64,000 bases of DNA from Phycisphaerae bacterium. GTDB lineage: Bacteria > Planctomycetota > Phycisphaerae > Phycisphaerales > SM1A02. Position 1 is the stretch's first letter, and each line of letters opens with the position of its first letter. The position numbers and the translations under genes were made by a program. Below, in pieces: positions 14,883 through 41,527 of this stretch. Under the pieces are notes generated by a model. It saw nothing but the letters and a program-made list of their open reading frames with translations, was not told the DNA's origin and searched no databases. Location: NCBI GenBank assembly GCA_002711415.1, contig PARI01000017.1:58502-122501 (forward strand), given 5' to 3'.

Positions 14883-16793
14883 GTGAGAATCCCCATTCGA
14901 TGGAAACTTCTGCTCTTCATTGGGGTCCCGGTTCTCCTGGCCTACCTGGCTGTCGGGGTAACCGAATTCATCGTTCTTCGTCGGGATGCCATGCAGATCA
15001 TGCAGAAGGAAGTCCAGCTCCTGGCCCAGTTGCAGGCTGAAGCCTTCAACATGCAGCTGTCAGAGGCCCAGAAGATCACCAATGCCTACGCCGCCTTCTT
15101 TCAGAAGCAGCCGGATCTGGAACTGGACGAGATCCATGATCTGCTCAGGACCATCCTGGACAGTGACGACCTGATCGCCGGCGTGGCCGTCGCCTACGAG
15201 CCGTTCCAGTCCTATGACCCGTCACTTCGAATCACCGCACCGTACATGTGGCTGCAGGACGGCGAGTACAAGCTCAAGGACATCGGGTTGGAAGCCTATG
15301 ACTACCTGGATCGGGAGTGGTACACCGTTGCCCGGGATCCAGGCAGACCCGGCTGGACCGAACCATATTACGGGCCGGTGTTCGAAGGACTGTTGTGCAC
15401 CTACTCGGTGCCCTTCTTCCGAGACGGCCGGATTCGAGGCGTGGTCACGATCGATCTGGATCTGGTGCCGTTGCAGGAGACGATTCCTGATGCCGGTATC
15501 GATGACGAGGCCTTCGCCGTTTTCAGCCGTTCCGGAGCCATCATCTCCCATCCCGACGAGTCCCTGATCCTCACCAAGACGGTCGACGACCTGATCAAGG
15601 ACTATGACGATCCGCAGTTCAAGAAGCTCCGCCAGAACATCGCCGACGCGACACCAGGTTCGGCAAGGGTCACGGGTTTCCCGATGCCATATCCGCATTG
15701 GATGGTTCTGACCCCAATCCAGGCAACGGGCTGGACCATGTCCGTGTCGGTCCCCGAGTCCTCCGTGATGGCACCCGTGTACATGCGCATCAGGTCCCTG
15801 ATGATGATTCTTGGTGGCGGTCTGGTCGTGATTCTCGTGGCGATCTTCGTGGTGGGTTCGATTCTCAGCCGCCCCGTGACCAACCTTGCCTCGGCCGTCA
15901 GTCGCATGCGTGCCGGCGATCTCTCGGCACAGGCCGAGAACATCAGCAACCGTGACGAGCTTGGTGATCTGGCTCGCGGTTTCAACGACATGACCACGCA
16001 GCTCCAGAAGCAGATCGACCAGTTGGCACTGGAGACCGCCGCCCGCGAAGCGGTCGAGAGCGAGATCCGAGTCGGACGGAAGATCCAGGTGTCGCTTCTT
16101 CCACAGGACTTCCCCGCATTTCCACAGCACCCCGAGATCGGGCTCTACGCGATCAACAGCGCCGCCAAGGAGGTCGCCGGAGACTTCTTCGACTTCTTCA
16201 TGGTCAACGGGAAGCTCATCGTGCTGATCGCCGATGTCTCCGGCAAAGGGGTTCCGGCGGCCCTGTTCATGGCGGTCAGTCGCACGATACTTCGCAACCT
16301 AGCCAATACCGGTGCCACGCCCGACGAGATCCTCACCGCGGCCAACACGCTCCTGGTGGCCGACAACAATGCCGGCCTGTTCGTCACGCTGATCCTCCTT
16401 CAATATGATCCGAAGTCCGGTCACTTCTCGATGGCCAACGGCGGCCATCCGCCCCCGTTCAAGATCACGACCGATGGAGCAGTCGAACCGTACGGCGAAA
16501 GCACCGGCACGGTCATCGGAATGATTCCCGATCAGAAATGGGGCAAGATCGAGGGCCATTTGAAGCCCGGCGAGTCGCTCGTTCTCTACACAGACGGTGT
16601 CAGTGAGGCCGGCGGCAAGGGCAAGCAGATGCTGGGCATCGATGGCACGCAGGCGTTGATCGAGCCGCACAGCAGCGAGGACCCGGAGCAGCTCTGCAAT
16701 TCGATCGTCTCATACGTGCACGAGTACGAGGATGGCAACCAGGGTGATGACATCACGGTCCTGGTCCTCAAGCACGACACGCCCTCAGGGTGA
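14883..16793 (+). CDS. Cache-HAMP-SpoIIE (RsbU-like) PP2C serine phosphatase
   Basis: 636 residues. TM1 is at about 8-30, an extracytoplasmic double Cache sensor at about 35-295, TM2 at about 303-327, HAMP at about 330-383 (LSRPVTNLASAVSRMRAGDLS), and a SpoIIE/PP2C phosphatase domain at about 395-632. Metal-binding motifs VAGDFFDFF, IADVSGKG, ANGGHPP and LYTDGVSEA are present. Such proteins dephosphorylate anti-anti-sigma factors in response to small ligands. No anti-sigma or STAS gene lies beside it, so its partner is elsewhere. The GTG start has GGAG 8 bases upstream. Confidence 0.93.
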   Translation: MRIPIRWKLLLFIGVPVLLAYLAVGVTEFIVLRRDAMQIMQKEVQLLAQLQAEAFNMQLSEAQKITNAYAAFFQKQPDLELDEIHDLLRTILDSDDLIAGVAVAYEPFQSYDPSLRITAPYMWLQDGEYKLKDIGLEAYDYLDREWYTVARDPGRPGWTEPYYGPVFEGLLCTYSVPFFRDGRIRGVVTIDLDLVPLQETIPDAGIDDEAFAVFSRSGAIISHPDESLILTKTVDDLIKDYDDPQFKKLRQNIADATPGSARVTGFPMPYPHWMVLTPIQATGWTMSVSVPESSVMAPVYMRIRSLMMILGGGLVVILVAIFVVGSILSRPVTNLASAVSRMRAGDLSAQAENISNRDELGDLARGFNDMTTQLQKQIDQLALETAAREAVESEIRVGRKIQVSLLPQDFPAFPQHPEIGLYAINSAAKEVAGDFFDFFMVNGKLIVLIADVSGKGVPAALFMAVSRTILRNLANTGATPDEILTAANTLLVADNNAGLFVTLILLQYDPKSGHFSMANGGHPPPFKITTDGAVEPYGESTGTVIGMIPDQKWGKIEGHLKPGESLVLYTDGVSEAGGKGKQMLGIDGTQALIEPHSSEDPEQLCNSIVSYVHEYEDGNQGDDITVLVLKHDTPSG

Positions 16794-17438
16794 CCAGGAG
16801 AGTTCCTGAACATCTCCGGTTGGGACCCTGCGAATGGAGCCGTCGCAGAACAGGAACCACGTCGAGCCATCCGGGTCCGACTCGACCTGCCCGGGCCCGC
16901 AGCCGGCAGGCGATCCGACCGTGCAACCGAACACGAGTGGGGTCATGTCCGGCTGATCAACCTGGGAAATCGCGATCCCCTCAAGTCCATCGTTCATGCA
17001 CCACTGCCCCTCGCCATCCCGATGAAGGTCCTGTTCGATTTGCGGATTCATCGAGCTCAACTTCGCCACCCAGTCTCCCGGTGATGGATACACCTGCTCG
17101 TGCTCCTGGGCCCACCGATTGATCGAACCATGGATTCGCGCCAGGGAGGCAACCGCTGCATAGTCTCCGCCGGAGATCCCCGTCAGCAGGAGCACGCCAC
17201 CGGTTCCACAGGCGATCGACACGCAGATCGCGATGATCGCGAGCGATGTTCCACCAAACGTCCCGTCCGACCGGTGGATTCGAACAAGAGCCATCAGCCC
17301 GAGCACGAGTCCGACCACGGAGAAGAGCCCGAAGGTCACCAGACCAAGGAAGCCCGTGATGATTCCCGCGACCGCCGATGGGGGGACCGGCTTGTGTCTT
17401 CTCCTGCGTGACAACCCCTGGGCCTGCTCAGTCACCAT
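16785..17438 (-). CDS. DUF4190-like membrane protein with pseudopilin-like C-terminal domain
   Basis: 217 residues. Two hydrophobic segments (about 25-50 and 58-85) around LGLMALVRIHRSDGTFGGTSLAI match the DUF4190 pattern. The extracytoplasmic part ends in WFLFCDGSIRRVP, resembling the H-x9-DG end of planctomycete pseudopilins. ATG 17438 has GGAG 4 bases upstream and is preferred over the frame's first codon at 17456. It overlaps the end of the AI-2E transporter gene by 11 bases, which suggests coupling, and its own end overlaps the convergent phosphatase by 9 bases. Confidence 0.68.
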   Translation of the reverse strand: MVTEQAQGLSRRRRHKPVPPSAVAGIITGFLGLVTFGLFSVVGLVLGLMALVRIHRSDGTFGGTSLAIIAICVSIACGTGGVLLLTGISGGDYAAVASLARIHGSINRWAQEHEQVYPSPGDWVAKLSSMNPQIEQDLHRDGEGQWCMNDGLEGIAISQVDQPDMTPLVFGCTVGSPAGCGPGQVESDPDGSTWFLFCDGSIRRVPTGDVQELSWSP

Positions 17439-18528
17439 TGTTCTCCGGCCTTGCATCCGGCGCGGATCCGAGCATCACGCCCATCCACTTCAGGTCATCC
17501 GAGTTGTCCAGGAGAATCTTGAGAACCATGGTCAGTGGAACACTCAGGATCATGCCGATCGGTCCCCAGACCCATCCCCAGAACACCATCGAGATGAAGA
17601 CCACGAGCGTGGACAGCCCCAGTCTTCGTCCCATCATCCGGGGTTCGAGAATGTTCCCGATCACCGTGTTGACCACCAGGTAGATGATGATCACGATGAT
17701 GGCCCTGTTCCAACCGAACTCAAGCAGTGCAAACAGTGTCGGCGGAACGGCCGCGATGATCGAACCGATCGTCGGAATGTAGTTCAGCAGGAAGGCCAGG
17801 AGTCCCCACAGGATGAAGTAATCGACTCCGAGGATCCACAGCCCGATCGCGACCACGACACCCGTGAGAATGCTGAGCTGGGTCTTGACGGCCAGGTATG
17901 CCTGGAGGTCCGAAAGGATCGCCGTGAACCGGCCCAGGTCGTCATCCGGCTTGTTGATCGCAGCCCGGATCTTTCTCGGGATCGTCGTCGCCTCCATCAT
18001 GATGAAGACCACCATCAGGAGAATAAGGAACGTGTTGGAGAGGATGTTGAGTATGGCCAGCATCCCGCCCCGAGCCCACGAGATCAGCCAGTTGTTCGGC
18101 AGCCACTGTTCCTGCTGCTGCGCATCCTCCTTCTCGATGGCCCCCTCGACCTCCGACTGGCCGATCGGCAGGTCGATTCCGAGGCCCTGCACCCACTGGA
18201 TCAGGGGATCAAGCTTCGACTTCAGGTTCGTCTCGATGCTGCCGAGATTGGCGAGGAGGCTCTGCACGGACGTTCCCACGTACGCGGAGACCATCCCGAA
18301 GATCACGATGACACCGATGAAGACGATGGACACCGCCATCCAGTCGGGAGCCCCCCTCTTCTTGAACCAGATCACCGGCGGCAGGCTGATGATCGAGAGG
18401 AACATGGCGACCAGCACCGGCCTGAGAACGGCCTGTGCCGCGATCATGCCGGCGACGATCACGACGATGCACGCGAACACCATCAGCGTCTTGAGGCCTC
18501 TTCCATTGGAACCGGCGCCATCGATCAT
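17428..18528 (-). CDS. AI-2E family transporter (PerM/DUF20)
   Basis: 366 residues with the family layout: paired N-terminal helices (about 15-60), a helix near 65-85, a soluble stretch (about 85-150), then a C-terminal helical block. Signature segments are LAVKTQLSILTGVVVAIGL, the FLLNYIPTIGSIIAAVPP motif and NILEPRMMGRRLGL. Members export small molecules or ions; AI-2 itself is only one proposed substrate. It precedes and overlaps the DUF4190-like gene. The 0.5 kb upstream of its start is non-coding and rich in inverted repeats. Confidence 0.9.
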   Translation of the reverse strand: MIDGAGSNGRGLKTLMVFACIVVIVAGMIAAQAVLRPVLVAMFLSIISLPPVIWFKKRGAPDWMAVSIVFIGVIVIFGMVSAYVGTSVQSLLANLGSIETNLKSKLDPLIQWVQGLGIDLPIGQSEVEGAIEKEDAQQQEQWLPNNWLISWARGGMLAILNILSNTFLILLMVVFIMMEATTIPRKIRAAINKPDDDLGRFTAILSDLQAYLAVKTQLSILTGVVVAIGLWILGVDYFILWGLLAFLLNYIPTIGSIIAAVPPTLFALLEFGWNRAIIVIIIYLVVNTVIGNILEPRMMGRRLGLSTLVVFISMVFWGWVWGPIGMILSVPLTMVLKILLDNSDDLKWMGVMLGSAPDARPENNGD

Positions 18529-18998
18529 GGCTCAACAATACCAGAGATCAACTTTGCTCATGATGTATAAACCTGGGTGGTGGCTTCGGACGGTGTGCAA
18601 GATCGCGGAAATGACCTTGAAGTGAATCCGATGCGCCACGTGGCGCGCCACCACCCAGGCTTGGTGAACAAGTCAGTTCCCCGCCCCGCATTCCACGGTG
18701 CAGGGGCGGGGAACCTTCCATCTCCGCCGCGAAGAGCCTTGCCTGGATGTAAAGGACCCCAAACGGCTTTCGCGACGGGACGGGACAACACTGTCGATGC
18801 AGGTCGACAGGACTTGGAGGCATTGAATTGGCGTGGTGCTTCTCTGGTGGACGCGAGTGGCTGATTCGCGTTGCTCTCTATGCCTATTACGCGACACGCA
18901 CCGGTTTCTTGCCAGTCATTTTCCAATGACTTTTTCCTTGGCGGCATCCAGGTTCGTAAACTCCACTCCTGGAACCGATTGCATCGACTGTAATTGTC
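18529..18998. other. Structured non-coding stretch, candidate RNA or long leader
   Basis: No gene is supportable in these 470 bases, but paired segments are dense. A 13-bp perfect stem joins 18572-18584 and 18647-18659 and encloses a 14-base palindrome (18633-18646). A 12-bp stem (18676-18687 with 18703-18714) extends by 3 pairs past one bulge. A stem of 10 pairs with one bulge joins 18728-18738 and 18765-18774, and a 7-bp stem joins 18791-18797 and 18804-18810. An AT-rich hairpin followed by T residues (18914-18935) would end a plus-strand transcript. Alternatively it is the minus-strand leader of the AI-2E transporter gene. I could not match it to tmRNA, RNase P RNA, SRP RNA or a riboswitch. 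Confidence 0.5.
18914..18935 (+). terminator. Weak intrinsic terminator-like hairpin
   Basis: AGTCATT, loop TTCC, AATGACT, then TTTT on the plus strand. The stem is 7 bp and AT-rich, so termination would be modest. Its polarity is opposite to both flanking genes, which is the main hint of a plus-strand non-coding transcript here. Confidence 0.35.
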
Positions 18999-19034
18999 AA
19001 AAAAACGAGCCTCCCGGTTGAACCGGGAGGCTCG
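18999..19034 (-). terminator. Rho-independent terminator of the FG-GAP/dockerin gene
   Basis: Read on the minus strand, a 14-bp perfect stem (19021-19034 with 19006-19019) with a one-base centre is followed by a run of seven T residues (18999-19005). It begins 33 bases after the stop codon at 19067. Confidence 0.92.
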
Positions 19035-19066
19035 CATCGAACCGTGGTGGTTCAGGACTCGTCCCG

Positions 19067-21028
19067 TCAGATCACAGGACCCCACTTGCCCAGCAAGCTC
19101 GCCAGGTCCGCACCCGTGACGATTCCATCACCGTCGAGGTCAAGGGGGGACTGCTTGCCCCACTGGCCCAGCAGTGCGGCAAGGTCCGAACCATCAACCC
19201 ATCCATTCCCATCGAAGTCTGGAGTCGACTCCTCCTGGGGTGGAGCGGCCTCGAACCTGAGTTCGAGCATCTCCTGGGAGTTGTACTGGTTGCCGGTGAG
19301 CCTCAGGAAGTAGAAGCTTCCCTTCTTGACATCGAACTGGTTCCGATGACCACCATGCGGGCTCGGACACTCCGTGCCACAATCGATCTCGGTCATCCAG
19401 TCAGCCCCGGGTCCCTCGTACACGACGATGTCGACGTCAACGCTCCAGGAATCCATGCAGAGAATCGTCTCGACCGAACCATCGGCATCGGGGATGTAAA
19501 GGTACCACTCGTCGATCTCATCGGCCTCGACACATTCGCCGAAGTCCACCATGCTGGGCTTCATGGCCGTGTTGAGCCCGTTGGTCGGGTTGAAACCCTC
19601 CTCGATGACCTGCGCCCACTCGGGAACATCCGTCGGTCGATGGCACGTGAAGAGGGCCTGGTCAGCGCAGATCCAGTCCCACTGGACCTCGCAGCAGAAT
19701 GGATCGACCGAGCAGACGCTTTCACAGCATTCCGCGTCATTGCATCCCGGCCCCGAGTCGTGGCTTGAAGCGCAGCGGCCTGCTCCCGGGTGACCGCAGT
19801 AGCTGTCGTATCGGGTCAGTCGGACCTTGGACGGACTCATCCGTGCGATCCACGCCTGGTTGATGTCCACGGATATGGAACCTTGGTGATCAAGATCGAT
19901 GATCTCGAACACCGGGGTCAGATCTCCACCGGGTTCGATACGGAAGACCTTGTGAATTGCTCCATGCGACCGATCAGCGAAGAGGATCATGTCTCCATGG
20001 ATGCTGATATCCGCACCAAACTCCGAGAATATGCCCGGAAATTCCGACTGGACCGTCTGGATCAGGTCCCACTCCTGGTTGTCCGTGGTCGCCCGGCGGA
20101 AGAGGTAGGCCTTGCCCACGTCGGCTTCGCTCAACTCGTACGGGATAGAGCCGAACTTGGCGCCGACGGCGATGTAATCGCCTTCGAACTCCACCTTCGA
20201 ACCATAGAAATCACCCATGTCATGTCCTGTGACGGTGCTTTTGAATTCATTCCGACCACGTATCGCCCCGCCGCCGATCGATGGTTCGCCATCCTCGGCC
20301 GGCACGTAGAGGTGCACCTCGCCAGGTCCTCCGCAGGTCGGAGACGCTTCCGAAATGATCAGTCGACCATCATCGATCTCCACATCGGTGCCGAATCTCG
20401 CACAGGGGGTCCTGTTGTCGCTGAATTCACTTTCAAGAATCCATCCGGAAGCCGTTTTCCTGTAGACAACGACTCGACCCATGTCCTCGAGTCCGGGCTC
20501 GTCGTATGACGGATTGCCGACGACCAGGAGATCCCCCTTGATGGCCACGTTCAGATCATCATCAGACCCCCAGGATCCGATTGATGGAAACAGTTGGCGA
20601 GAGGTCATGAGCTCCCACCAGTCCCCACTGCCACCATCACTCAACGTGCGCACCCACACCTCGCCTGTAGCCGAACCTCCACCGGCGAACACCGCGGTCT
20701 GCCCATCACTGGCCACGTCGGTCCATCGACCGACAACTTCCGATTCCCAGTAGTGACGATGCCATGCAGCAGCAGTCGATCCGCCACCGGATGCGTTTGA
20801 GTTGACGTACATCGAAGCCCTTGACCAGGAGGGGTTCTCTTCGATCGTCAGCAGGAGTTTCTCCGACATGTCCATGCGGGTGAAAATCCCATCCTCGAGC
20901 GTTGGGCTCAGTTCGGCCCGAGTGTTCAACTGTTCAGCCTGGCCGAGTGCGGGGACTGACAGCATGCTCAAGCTTGCTGCGATCATCAGTCCATGACACA
21001 TGGACTGGGTTCCATTCGTGATTTCCAT
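19067..21028 (-). CDS. Exported FG-GAP-like propeller protein with Cys-rich module and C-terminal dockerin-like domain
   Basis: 653 residues. A signal peptide (MEITNGTQSMCHGLMIAAS...ALGQ) is followed by a beta-propeller with integrin-alpha-like strands (FGTDVEIDDGRLIISEAS, FYGSKVEFEGDYIAVGAKFG, FGADISIHGDMILFADRS). A Cys-rich block (CCESVCSVDPFCCEVQWDWIC) and a beta-sandwich of about 110 residues come next. Two dockerin-like loops, DFDGNGWVDGSDLAALLGQWG and DLDGDGIVTGADLASLLGKWG, end the protein. Likely surface-displayed or secreted. The start is 21028, where GGAG stands 9 bases upstream; the frame extends to 21064. A strong terminator follows the gene. Confidence 0.85.
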   Translation of the reverse strand: MEITNGTQSMCHGLMIAASLSMLSVPALGQAEQLNTRAELSPTLEDGIFTRMDMSEKLLLTIEENPSWSRASMYVNSNASGGGSTAAAWHRHYWESEVVGRWTDVASDGQTAVFAGGGSATGEVWVRTLSDGGSGDWWELMTSRQLFPSIGSWGSDDDLNVAIKGDLLVVGNPSYDEPGLEDMGRVVVYRKTASGWILESEFSDNRTPCARFGTDVEIDDGRLIISEASPTCGGPGEVHLYVPAEDGEPSIGGGAIRGRNEFKSTVTGHDMGDFYGSKVEFEGDYIAVGAKFGSIPYELSEADVGKAYLFRRATTDNQEWDLIQTVQSEFPGIFSEFGADISIHGDMILFADRSHGAIHKVFRIEPGGDLTPVFEIIDLDHQGSISVDINQAWIARMSPSKVRLTRYDSYCGHPGAGRCASSHDSGPGCNDAECCESVCSVDPFCCEVQWDWICADQALFTCHRPTDVPEWAQVIEEGFNPTNGLNTAMKPSMVDFGECVEADEIDEWYLYIPDADGSVETILCMDSWSVDVDIVVYEGPGADWMTEIDCGTECPSPHGGHRNQFDVKKGSFYFLRLTGNQYNSQEMLELRFEAAPPQEESTPDFDGNGWVDGSDLAALLGQWGKQSPLDLDGDGIVTGADLASLLGKWGPVI

Positions 21029-21301
21029 ATTGATGTACTCCATGCGAATCAAGAAGACAGCCATGCGGGTCGATGATCCGCAGGGCCGATCTGTACCCGG
21101 ACCCCTCGTGGGGTATCAGGATGATTTGATTCGTCTGATCCAGGAATGTCCCGCCTCCGACGGGCGGGTCTATGGGGTTTCCGTGATCTGGAGCCGTCTC
21201 TCTCAGCCAGTATCTGAAATTTGAATCGAGTCACCGTTGAATGTGGCTCGGACACTGTTTTCCCCGGTATCGTGGATGTCCGTTCCCAAGGAGATCCCCC
21301 C

Positions 21302-41454: not shown

Positions 41455-41527
41455 TGGAGCCGATCGGGCTTGAACCGACGACCTCCTGCATGCCATGCAG
41501 GCGCTCTCCCAACTGAGCTACGGCCCC
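41455..41527 (-). tRNA. tRNA-Ala(GGC)
   Basis: A full cloverleaf on the minus strand: acceptor GGGGCCG (41521-41527) with CGGCTCC (41456-41462), containing the G3-U70 wobble pair that marks alanine tRNA. The D arm is GCTC/GAGC, the anticodon stem CCTGC/GCAGG, the loop ATGGCAT with anticodon GGC, and the T arm carries GGTTCAAGCC. The discriminator is A (41455) and the CCA end is not encoded. Confidence 0.95.

What the first reader, a model, noticed from the sequence alone, without database searches (positions are those of the whole stretch)
18572..18935. Dense RNA-like secondary structure in a gene-free 0.5 kb stretch
Four consecutive stems (13-bp perfect, 12+3 bp, 10 pairs with a bulge, 7 bp) sit between the AI-2E transporter start and a strong terminator. 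An AT-rich hairpin with T run points to a plus-strand transcript end. No known tRNA, tmRNA, RNase P RNA, SRP RNA or riboswitch motif was recognised, so this may be an undescribed structured RNA or a long regulatory leader.
Basis: partly seen in the sequence, partly recalled or inferred. Interest (0 to 1): 0.55.

Follow-up and report, generated by a model that had tools for sequence, protein, structure and literature searches.

The report
Orphan structured RNA-like intergenic block
A 250-base gene-free stretch beside a membrane transporter gene can fold into an unusually stable two-part RNA-like structure that matched no known RNA family in our searches, but no relative of it was found, so its function and even its transcribed strand remain unproven.

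Summary
The fold is strand-asymmetric: the 250-nt block has z -9.3 on minus and -6.0 on plus. Framed by hand, it is lower than all 7,186 grid windows in 462.5 kb of this genome; on the grid itself its best overlapping window ranks second. On minus it forms a multi-hairpin domain and a three-way junction closed by 16 pairs, about 40 nt before the AI-2E transporter start codon. No Rfam family matches. RNase P RNA, tmRNA and SRP RNA lie elsewhere. The overlapping ORFs have no convincing relatives. No homologue was found by DNA search (200 other genomes) or single-sequence covariance models (up to 396 others), so covariation cannot be tested.

Strand evidence conflicts. Stability, G.U pairs and codirection with AI-2E favour minus. 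A terminator-like hairpin, a TATAAA box and A-rich loops favour plus. Best guess, at modest confidence: a minus-strand 5' leader of the AI-2E/DUF4190 operon. Rivals: a plus-strand ncRNA, or a DNA-level palindrome cluster.

The parts
18566..18665 (-). Domain B: three-way junction closed by 16 continuous pairs (18569-18584 with 18647-18662), with one 5-bp hairpin arm and one 6+7-bp arm; about 40 nt before the AI-2E start codon
   Evidence: fold -56.9 kcal/mol, z -8.55 on minus against -4.78 on plus; second-lowest peak of 70,152 windows
18676..18714 (.). Element 2: GC-rich hairpin, 12 bp perfect plus inner pairs
   Evidence: z -5.9 plus, -5.3 minus
18716..18786 (-). Element 3: 28-pair hairpin on the minus strand
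   Evidence: -39.1 (minus) against -27.0 (plus) kcal/mol; z -5.33 against -2.06
18788..18815 (.). Element 4: hairpin of 7 (minus) or 8 (plus) pairs; on minus 18811-18815 can close elements 2-4 into one domain by pairing with 18670-18674
18665..18674 (-). Segment with competing partners: 18811-18816 (closing the multi-hairpin domain) or 18550-18560 (just upstream of the AI-2E start)
   Evidence: pair probabilities: 0.1-0.3 for the first partner in three of four folds (not above 0.05 in the fourth), mostly 0.5-0.97 for the second; inference, post hoc
18914..18938 (+). Weak intrinsic-terminator-like hairpin and T run on the plus strand
   Evidence: not listed by the scan that asks for three G-C pairs
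18566..18571 (+). TATAAA box on plus; the minus reading TATACA (18569-18564) overlaps it; no -35 consensus
   Evidence: read directly; 0 sigma-70-type promoters found by scan
17428..18528 (-). AI-2E family transporter gene (PF01594)
   Evidence: Pfam E 4.5e-64
16785..17456 (-). Downstream overlapping gene, DUF4190-like (30.3 bits, below the Pfam cut-off of 35)
19005..19035 (-). Strong intrinsic terminator after the minus-strand gene 19067-21064

Best explanation
The stretch most likely specifies a structured RNA on the minus strand: the 5' leader of the AI-2E transporter/DUF4190 operon. It would run from a promoter between 19005 and about 18816 to the start codon at 18528. Shown: an exceptionally stable two-domain fold on that strand, no coding signal found, codirection with and proximity to AI-2E. 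Inferred: that it is transcribed; that the two genes form an operon; that the hairpins act in cis as a barrier that stabilises the mRNA or controls ribosome entry; and that the segment 18665-18674, which can pair with either 18811-18816 or 18550-18560 next to the start codon, makes the leader switchable.
For: Minus-strand block z -9.34 with the centroid equal to the MFE, against -5.96 on plus. Framed by hand, lower than 7,186 of 7,186 grid windows. G.U pairs: 8 in elements 1 and 3 folded on minus against 3 on plus. In this genome's RNase P RNA, tmRNA and SRP RNA the true strand is also the more stable one, by 13.4, 13.4 and 6.0 kcal/mol; here minus is more stable by 16.2. The upstream gene has its own terminator, so the gap of about 475 nt should hold signals of its own, and AT-rich stretches at 18900-18959 and 18960-19019 could hold a promoter. 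Competing helices next to the start codon.
Against: No sigma-70-type promoter recognised on either strand. An AT-rich dip at 18520-18579 with TATACA at 18569-18564 on minus could be the AI-2E promoter itself, which would leave the block outside the AI-2E transcript. Unpaired bases are not A-rich on minus (19 A to 20 U) but are on plus (30 to 14); RNase P RNA has 64:14 and tmRNA 50:28 on the true strand. No conserved leader at AI-2E homologues: model R1 has no convincing match in 37 such loci, 8 of them contigs held twice. Stems this long and perfect are unlike a typical switchable aptamer (recalled). G.U counts are small.
Confidence: 0.38

Rival explanations
1. Free-standing plus-strand noncoding RNA of about 360-370 nt, divergent from AI-2E, starting near the TATAAA box and ending at the terminator at 18914-18938, convergent with the minus-strand gene 19067-21064.
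For: Terminator-like hairpin with T run, 4 of 1,000 shuffles as low; the two facing terminators are the layout expected between convergent units; TATAAA at 18566-18571 in an AT-rich dip; A-rich loops on plus, 30 A to 14 U; plus fold z -5.96.
Against: Less stable than minus by 16.2 kcal/mol; element 3 is weakly structured on plus (z -2.06, 34 of 1,000 shuffles as low); 18816-18905 is unstructured; a start about 7 nt after TATAAA would cut off the first part of the 13-bp arm; no -35 consensus; the terminator pattern is common by chance (22 real, 7-19 shuffled).
Confidence: 0.27
2. DNA-level palindrome cluster: protein-binding or recombination sites, or the remnant of a small mobile element. The RNA fold is only a by-product.
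For: Fold z is far beyond this genome's own RNase P RNA (-2.7), tmRNA (-4.4) or SRP RNA (-0.4), so the stems are longer and more regular than in these RNAs; both strands fold well; a relative (L035) has an unrelated perfect 17-bp palindrome upstream of its AI-2E gene.
Against: Single copy in the genome: one further match of 19 nt only. No match in phage or plasmid records; 0 exact matches of the arm pattern in viral contigs. Strand asymmetry of elements 1 and 3.
Confidence: 0.22
3. Decaying or unselected intergenic sequence with fortuitous stems.
For: No homologue in relatives; perfect 13-bp inverted repeats occur by chance about once per 462.5 kb.
Against: Three adjacent elements, each with 0 of 1,000 shuffles as low on minus; block lower than all 7,186 grid windows.
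Confidence: 0.1

Closest known systems
Structured 5' leaders and riboswitches of bacterial transporter genes (general class; recalled)
   Same: Long structured stretch just upstream of a codirectional transporter gene; competing helices can be drawn
   Different: No Rfam match; closing stem of 16 continuous pairs is more rigid than a usual aptamer P1 (recalled); no conservation seen at homologous genes; transcription not shown
Free-standing bacterial sRNAs with intrinsic terminators (general class; recalled)
   Same: Gene-free interval, promoter-like box, terminator-like hairpin on plus
   Different: Main structure is better on the other strand; no homologue; terminator weak
Intergenic hairpins next to genes, e.g. 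the apparent tuf-rpmG spacer of this genome (L135 18202-18350; gene names by eye)
   Same: An apparently non-coding peak of even greater stability in the sample
   Different: Two hairpins only, no three-way junction; lies at the end of a gene

Membership tests
Any Rfam 15 family | Covariance-model score at or above the gathering cut-off | tested here: not met
   Only a tRNA at 41455-41527 in the window; best sub-threshold hit in 18300-19300 by bits is isrJ, 22 bits against a cut-off of 37, at 18962-19034 over the terminator
RNase P RNA, tmRNA or SRP RNA of this organism | The genome's own copy lies at this place | tested here: not met
   Found over the cut-off at G000:C15:33944, C31:130326 and C37:6300
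6S RNA | RF00013 match | tested here: not met
   0 matches in the whole genome (the control rings in 6 of 14 genomes, so a diverged 6S can be missed); a single large central bubble (recalled) is not what folds here
Riboswitch or cis-regulatory leader | Conserved structure upstream of homologous genes | tested here: not met
   Model R1 over the window and 37 AI-2E loci (8 of them contigs held twice): own site on both strands, otherwise best E 0.41; no DNA match over 20 nt in 40 loci. The model rests on one sequence, so distant relatives can be missed
Riboswitch or cis-regulatory leader | Covariation supporting the helices | not testable with these tools
   No homologues found
Riboswitch or cis-regulatory leader | Transcribed as part of the AI-2E mRNA | not testable with these tools
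   No transcriptome held
Repetitive intergenic palindromes (REP/MITE-like) | Multiple copies in the genome | tested here: not met
   Own genome: the site itself plus one 19-nt match at E 0.6; R1 and R2 find one place each in the own genome
Protein-coding gene | Domain match or conserved ORF | tested here: not met
   0 Pfam families for five ORFs of the region. Two ORFs searched in 121 genomes: at E up to 0.01, 5 of 120 others (all with stops inside) and 9 of 120 others (6 of these 9 uninterrupted), none above 22.4 bits, best E 4.8e-4 and 5.9e-4

The most novel reading that the evidence does not exclude
A new two-domain regulatory leader (possibly ligand- or temperature-responsive) of an AI-2E family transporter operon in a Phycisphaerales-like lineage, in which the segment 18665-18674 chooses between closing the upstream multi-hairpin domain and sequestering the region just before the start codon.
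Probability: 0.12. Interest if true: 0.6.

Novelty: new member of a known kind. Interest (0 to 1): 0.34.

Why it matters
If transcribed, it would be a structured RNA of a poorly sampled phylum with no relative found in Rfam and with one of the most stable folds in the part of its genome examined, next to a transporter family whose substrates and regulation are largely unsettled (recalled). It also shows the limit of single-genome RNA finding: the fold is beyond chance, yet strand and function cannot be fixed without relatives or RNA data.

Tried and rejected
Known RNA: Rfam scans of the window and of 18300-19300 gave no family for the stretch; RNase P RNA, tmRNA and SRP RNA were located elsewhere and 6S was not found.

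Homologues: DNA search in 201 genomes gave, outside the own genome, only matches spanning 45 or fewer of 470 query bases, in 44 of 200 others at E up to 0.1. Models R1 and R2 in 151 genomes gave 7 and 1 of 150 others at E up to 1, best E 0.049 and 0.52 per genome, no more than chance for that many genomes. R1 in 397 genomes of the class gave 1 of 396 others at E up to 0.1. These searches used Infernal's stricter filters and scored only the best first-look candidates of each genome. The models rest on one sequence entered twice, so they find only close relatives. Phage and plasmid collections gave no match; an exact arm pattern gave 0 in viral contigs. Metagenome contigs could not be scanned.

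Synteny: AI-2E homologues are at best 54% identical. Of 40 loci (32 distinct contigs, many with only about 1.5 kb of flank) none shows the window's upstream gene next to AI-2E; one, L043, has a weak SpoIIE-like match (E 1.4e-11) convergent and close downstream of AI-2E, as the SpoIIE gene is in the window; EF-hand/dockerin-like matches in L052, L053 and L057 lie some 5 kb or more away, except L057 at about 3.6 kb. I folded the upstream sense strand of 16 of those loci: 1 of 16 (L035) reaches z -4.72, through an unrelated perfect 17-bp palindrome in the called 5' end of a divergent glucose/sorbosone dehydrogenase ORF; two others pass -3 (L055, L057).

Coding: five ORFs have no Pfam match; two of them were searched in relatives and have no convincing match.

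Replication origin: no skew switch at the region in 10-kb steps and no TTATNCACA box in the window.

Promoter words: hexamer enrichment upstream of ORFs was inconclusive; TATACA 7 against 0.9 expected, at mixed positions. My gene calls there were crude and replaced AI-2E itself by a spurious longer ORF.

Literature: AI-2E with riboswitch (0 papers), structured noncoding RNA with Phycisphaerae (0 papers), Planctomycetes with RNA terms, large ornate RNAs. I saw only the listings and the starts of abstracts; no paper was opened. Nothing on this stretch appeared in them.

Full report
What is there. The interval lies between the start of an AI-2E family transporter gene (17428-18528, minus strand; PF01594, E 4.5e-64) and the strong intrinsic terminator (19005-19035, minus) that follows the next minus-strand gene, 19067-21064. 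In the rows shown no genome is of the same genus; the first handles are already 'same family'.

The stems. On the minus strand elements 1 and 3 become larger. Element 1 (18569-18662) is a three-way junction closed by 16 continuous pairs. Element 2 (18676-18714) is a GC-rich hairpin. Element 3 (18716-18786) is a 28-pair hairpin. Element 4 (18788-18815) is a 7-bp hairpin. When 18566-18815 is folded alone, 18811-18815 pairs with 18670-18674, so elements 2 to 4 form one domain. The stretch 18816-18905 folds like shuffled sequence.

More than chance. Elements 1, 2 and 3 on the minus strand each had 0 of 1,000 dinucleotide shuffles as low; on plus, element 3 had 34. The block has z -9.34 on minus and -5.96 on plus (100 other shuffles gave -8.84 and -6.63). 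As an internal yardstick I folded 462,501 bases of the same genome: the window plus 398,501 bases from two contigs. In 100-nt windows every 13 nt, element 1 on minus is the second-lowest non-overlapping peak of 70,152 windows. The lowest is a double hairpin in an apparent tuf-rpmG spacer (gene names by eye). Of the 22 peaks shown many lie in long ORFs, and some others look like terminators. A coarser first scan (every 50 nt) missed the junction through its frame; its best window here ranks 6 of 18,272. In 250-nt windows every 125 nt, the block, framed by hand and so favoured, is lower on minus than all 7,186; on plus one is as low. On the grid itself the best overlapping window ranks second.

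Which strand. For minus: energy, by 16.2 kcal/mol, and more G.U pairs in elements 1 and 3 (8 against 3). In this genome's own RNase P RNA, tmRNA and SRP RNA the true strand is also the more stable one. For plus: a terminator-like hairpin with T run at 18914-18938, facing the opposite gene's terminator as at convergent units; a TATAAA box at 18566-18571 in an AT-rich dip; and A-rich loops (30 A to 14 U on plus, 19 to 20 on minus; RNase P RNA 64:14 and tmRNA 50:28 on the true strand). The terminator pattern is not rare (22 real against 7-19 in six shuffles of 462.5 kb), and a transcript that starts after TATAAA would lack part of the 13-bp arm. I regard the strand as unresolved, with a lean to minus.

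What it is not. It matches no Rfam family. RNase P RNA, tmRNA and SRP RNA are elsewhere; 6S was not found by its model. It is single-copy in the assembly held, which is rated 94% complete. Five ORFs have no Pfam match. Two of them, searched in 121 genomes, have only weak matches of at most 22.4 bits: 5 of 120 others, all interrupted, and 9 of 120 others, 6 of these uninterrupted.

Relatives. No DNA homologue in 200 other genomes beyond matches spanning 45 or fewer of 470 query bases. Covariance models from the single sequence find only the own site plus chance-level hits. AI-2E homologues at E up to 1e-30 occur in 37 of 201 genomes, the own included. Of 40 loci examined (32 distinct contigs) none shares the upstream neighbour; one (L043) has a SpoIIE-like match convergent downstream. 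R1 finds nothing convincing in the 37 loci given to, 8 of which are contigs held twice. Among 16 loci whose upstream sense strand was folded, two pass z -3 and one (L035, z -4.72) has an unrelated perfect 17-bp palindrome; the other 13 stay above -3. Covariation therefore cannot be tested.

How it may work. My best guess, at 0.38, is a minus-strand 5' leader of the AI-2E/DUF4190 operon. In partition-function folds of four possible transcripts, the segment 18665-18674 pairs mostly with 18550-18560, just upstream of the start codon, and to a lesser extent with 18811-18816 or, in one fold, 18530-18537. That is compatible with a switch, but it was seen after the fact and is not shown to matter. 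A simpler role is a stable RNA barrier that protects the mRNA. Transcription itself is inferred.

Verdict. A real, statistically exceptional, orphan structured stretch; an RNA function is plausible but unproven.

Noticed in passing
L135 18202-18350: Two adjacent very stable hairpins in an apparent tuf-rpmG spacer (gene names by eye); the lowest 100-nt fold of the 462.5 kb sample.
   Followed up: partly
L035 (reverse complement) 1345-1381: Perfect 17-bp palindrome with a 3-nt loop upstream of an AI-2E gene, in the called 5' end of a divergent glucose/sorbosone dehydrogenase ORF; no sequence similarity to the window block.
   Followed up: partly
window 18532-18561 (minus): Possible nine-codon upstream reading frame whose stop lies three bases before the AI-2E ATG (read by eye); could couple translation if the leader is transcribed.
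   Followed up: no
window 41455-41527 (minus): tRNA gene, the only Rfam match of the window above its cut-off.
   Followed up: no
window 19067-21064 (minus): Protein with an FG-GAP repeat (above the Pfam cut-off) and a C-terminal EF-hand/dockerin-like tail (below the cut-offs); similar tails occur on the AI-2E contigs L052, L053 and L057 but not adjacent.
   Followed up: no
L043 1462-3177: An AI-2E gene with a SpoIIE-like match convergent and close downstream, a loose echo of the window's SpoIIE/AI-2E arrangement.
   Followed up: no
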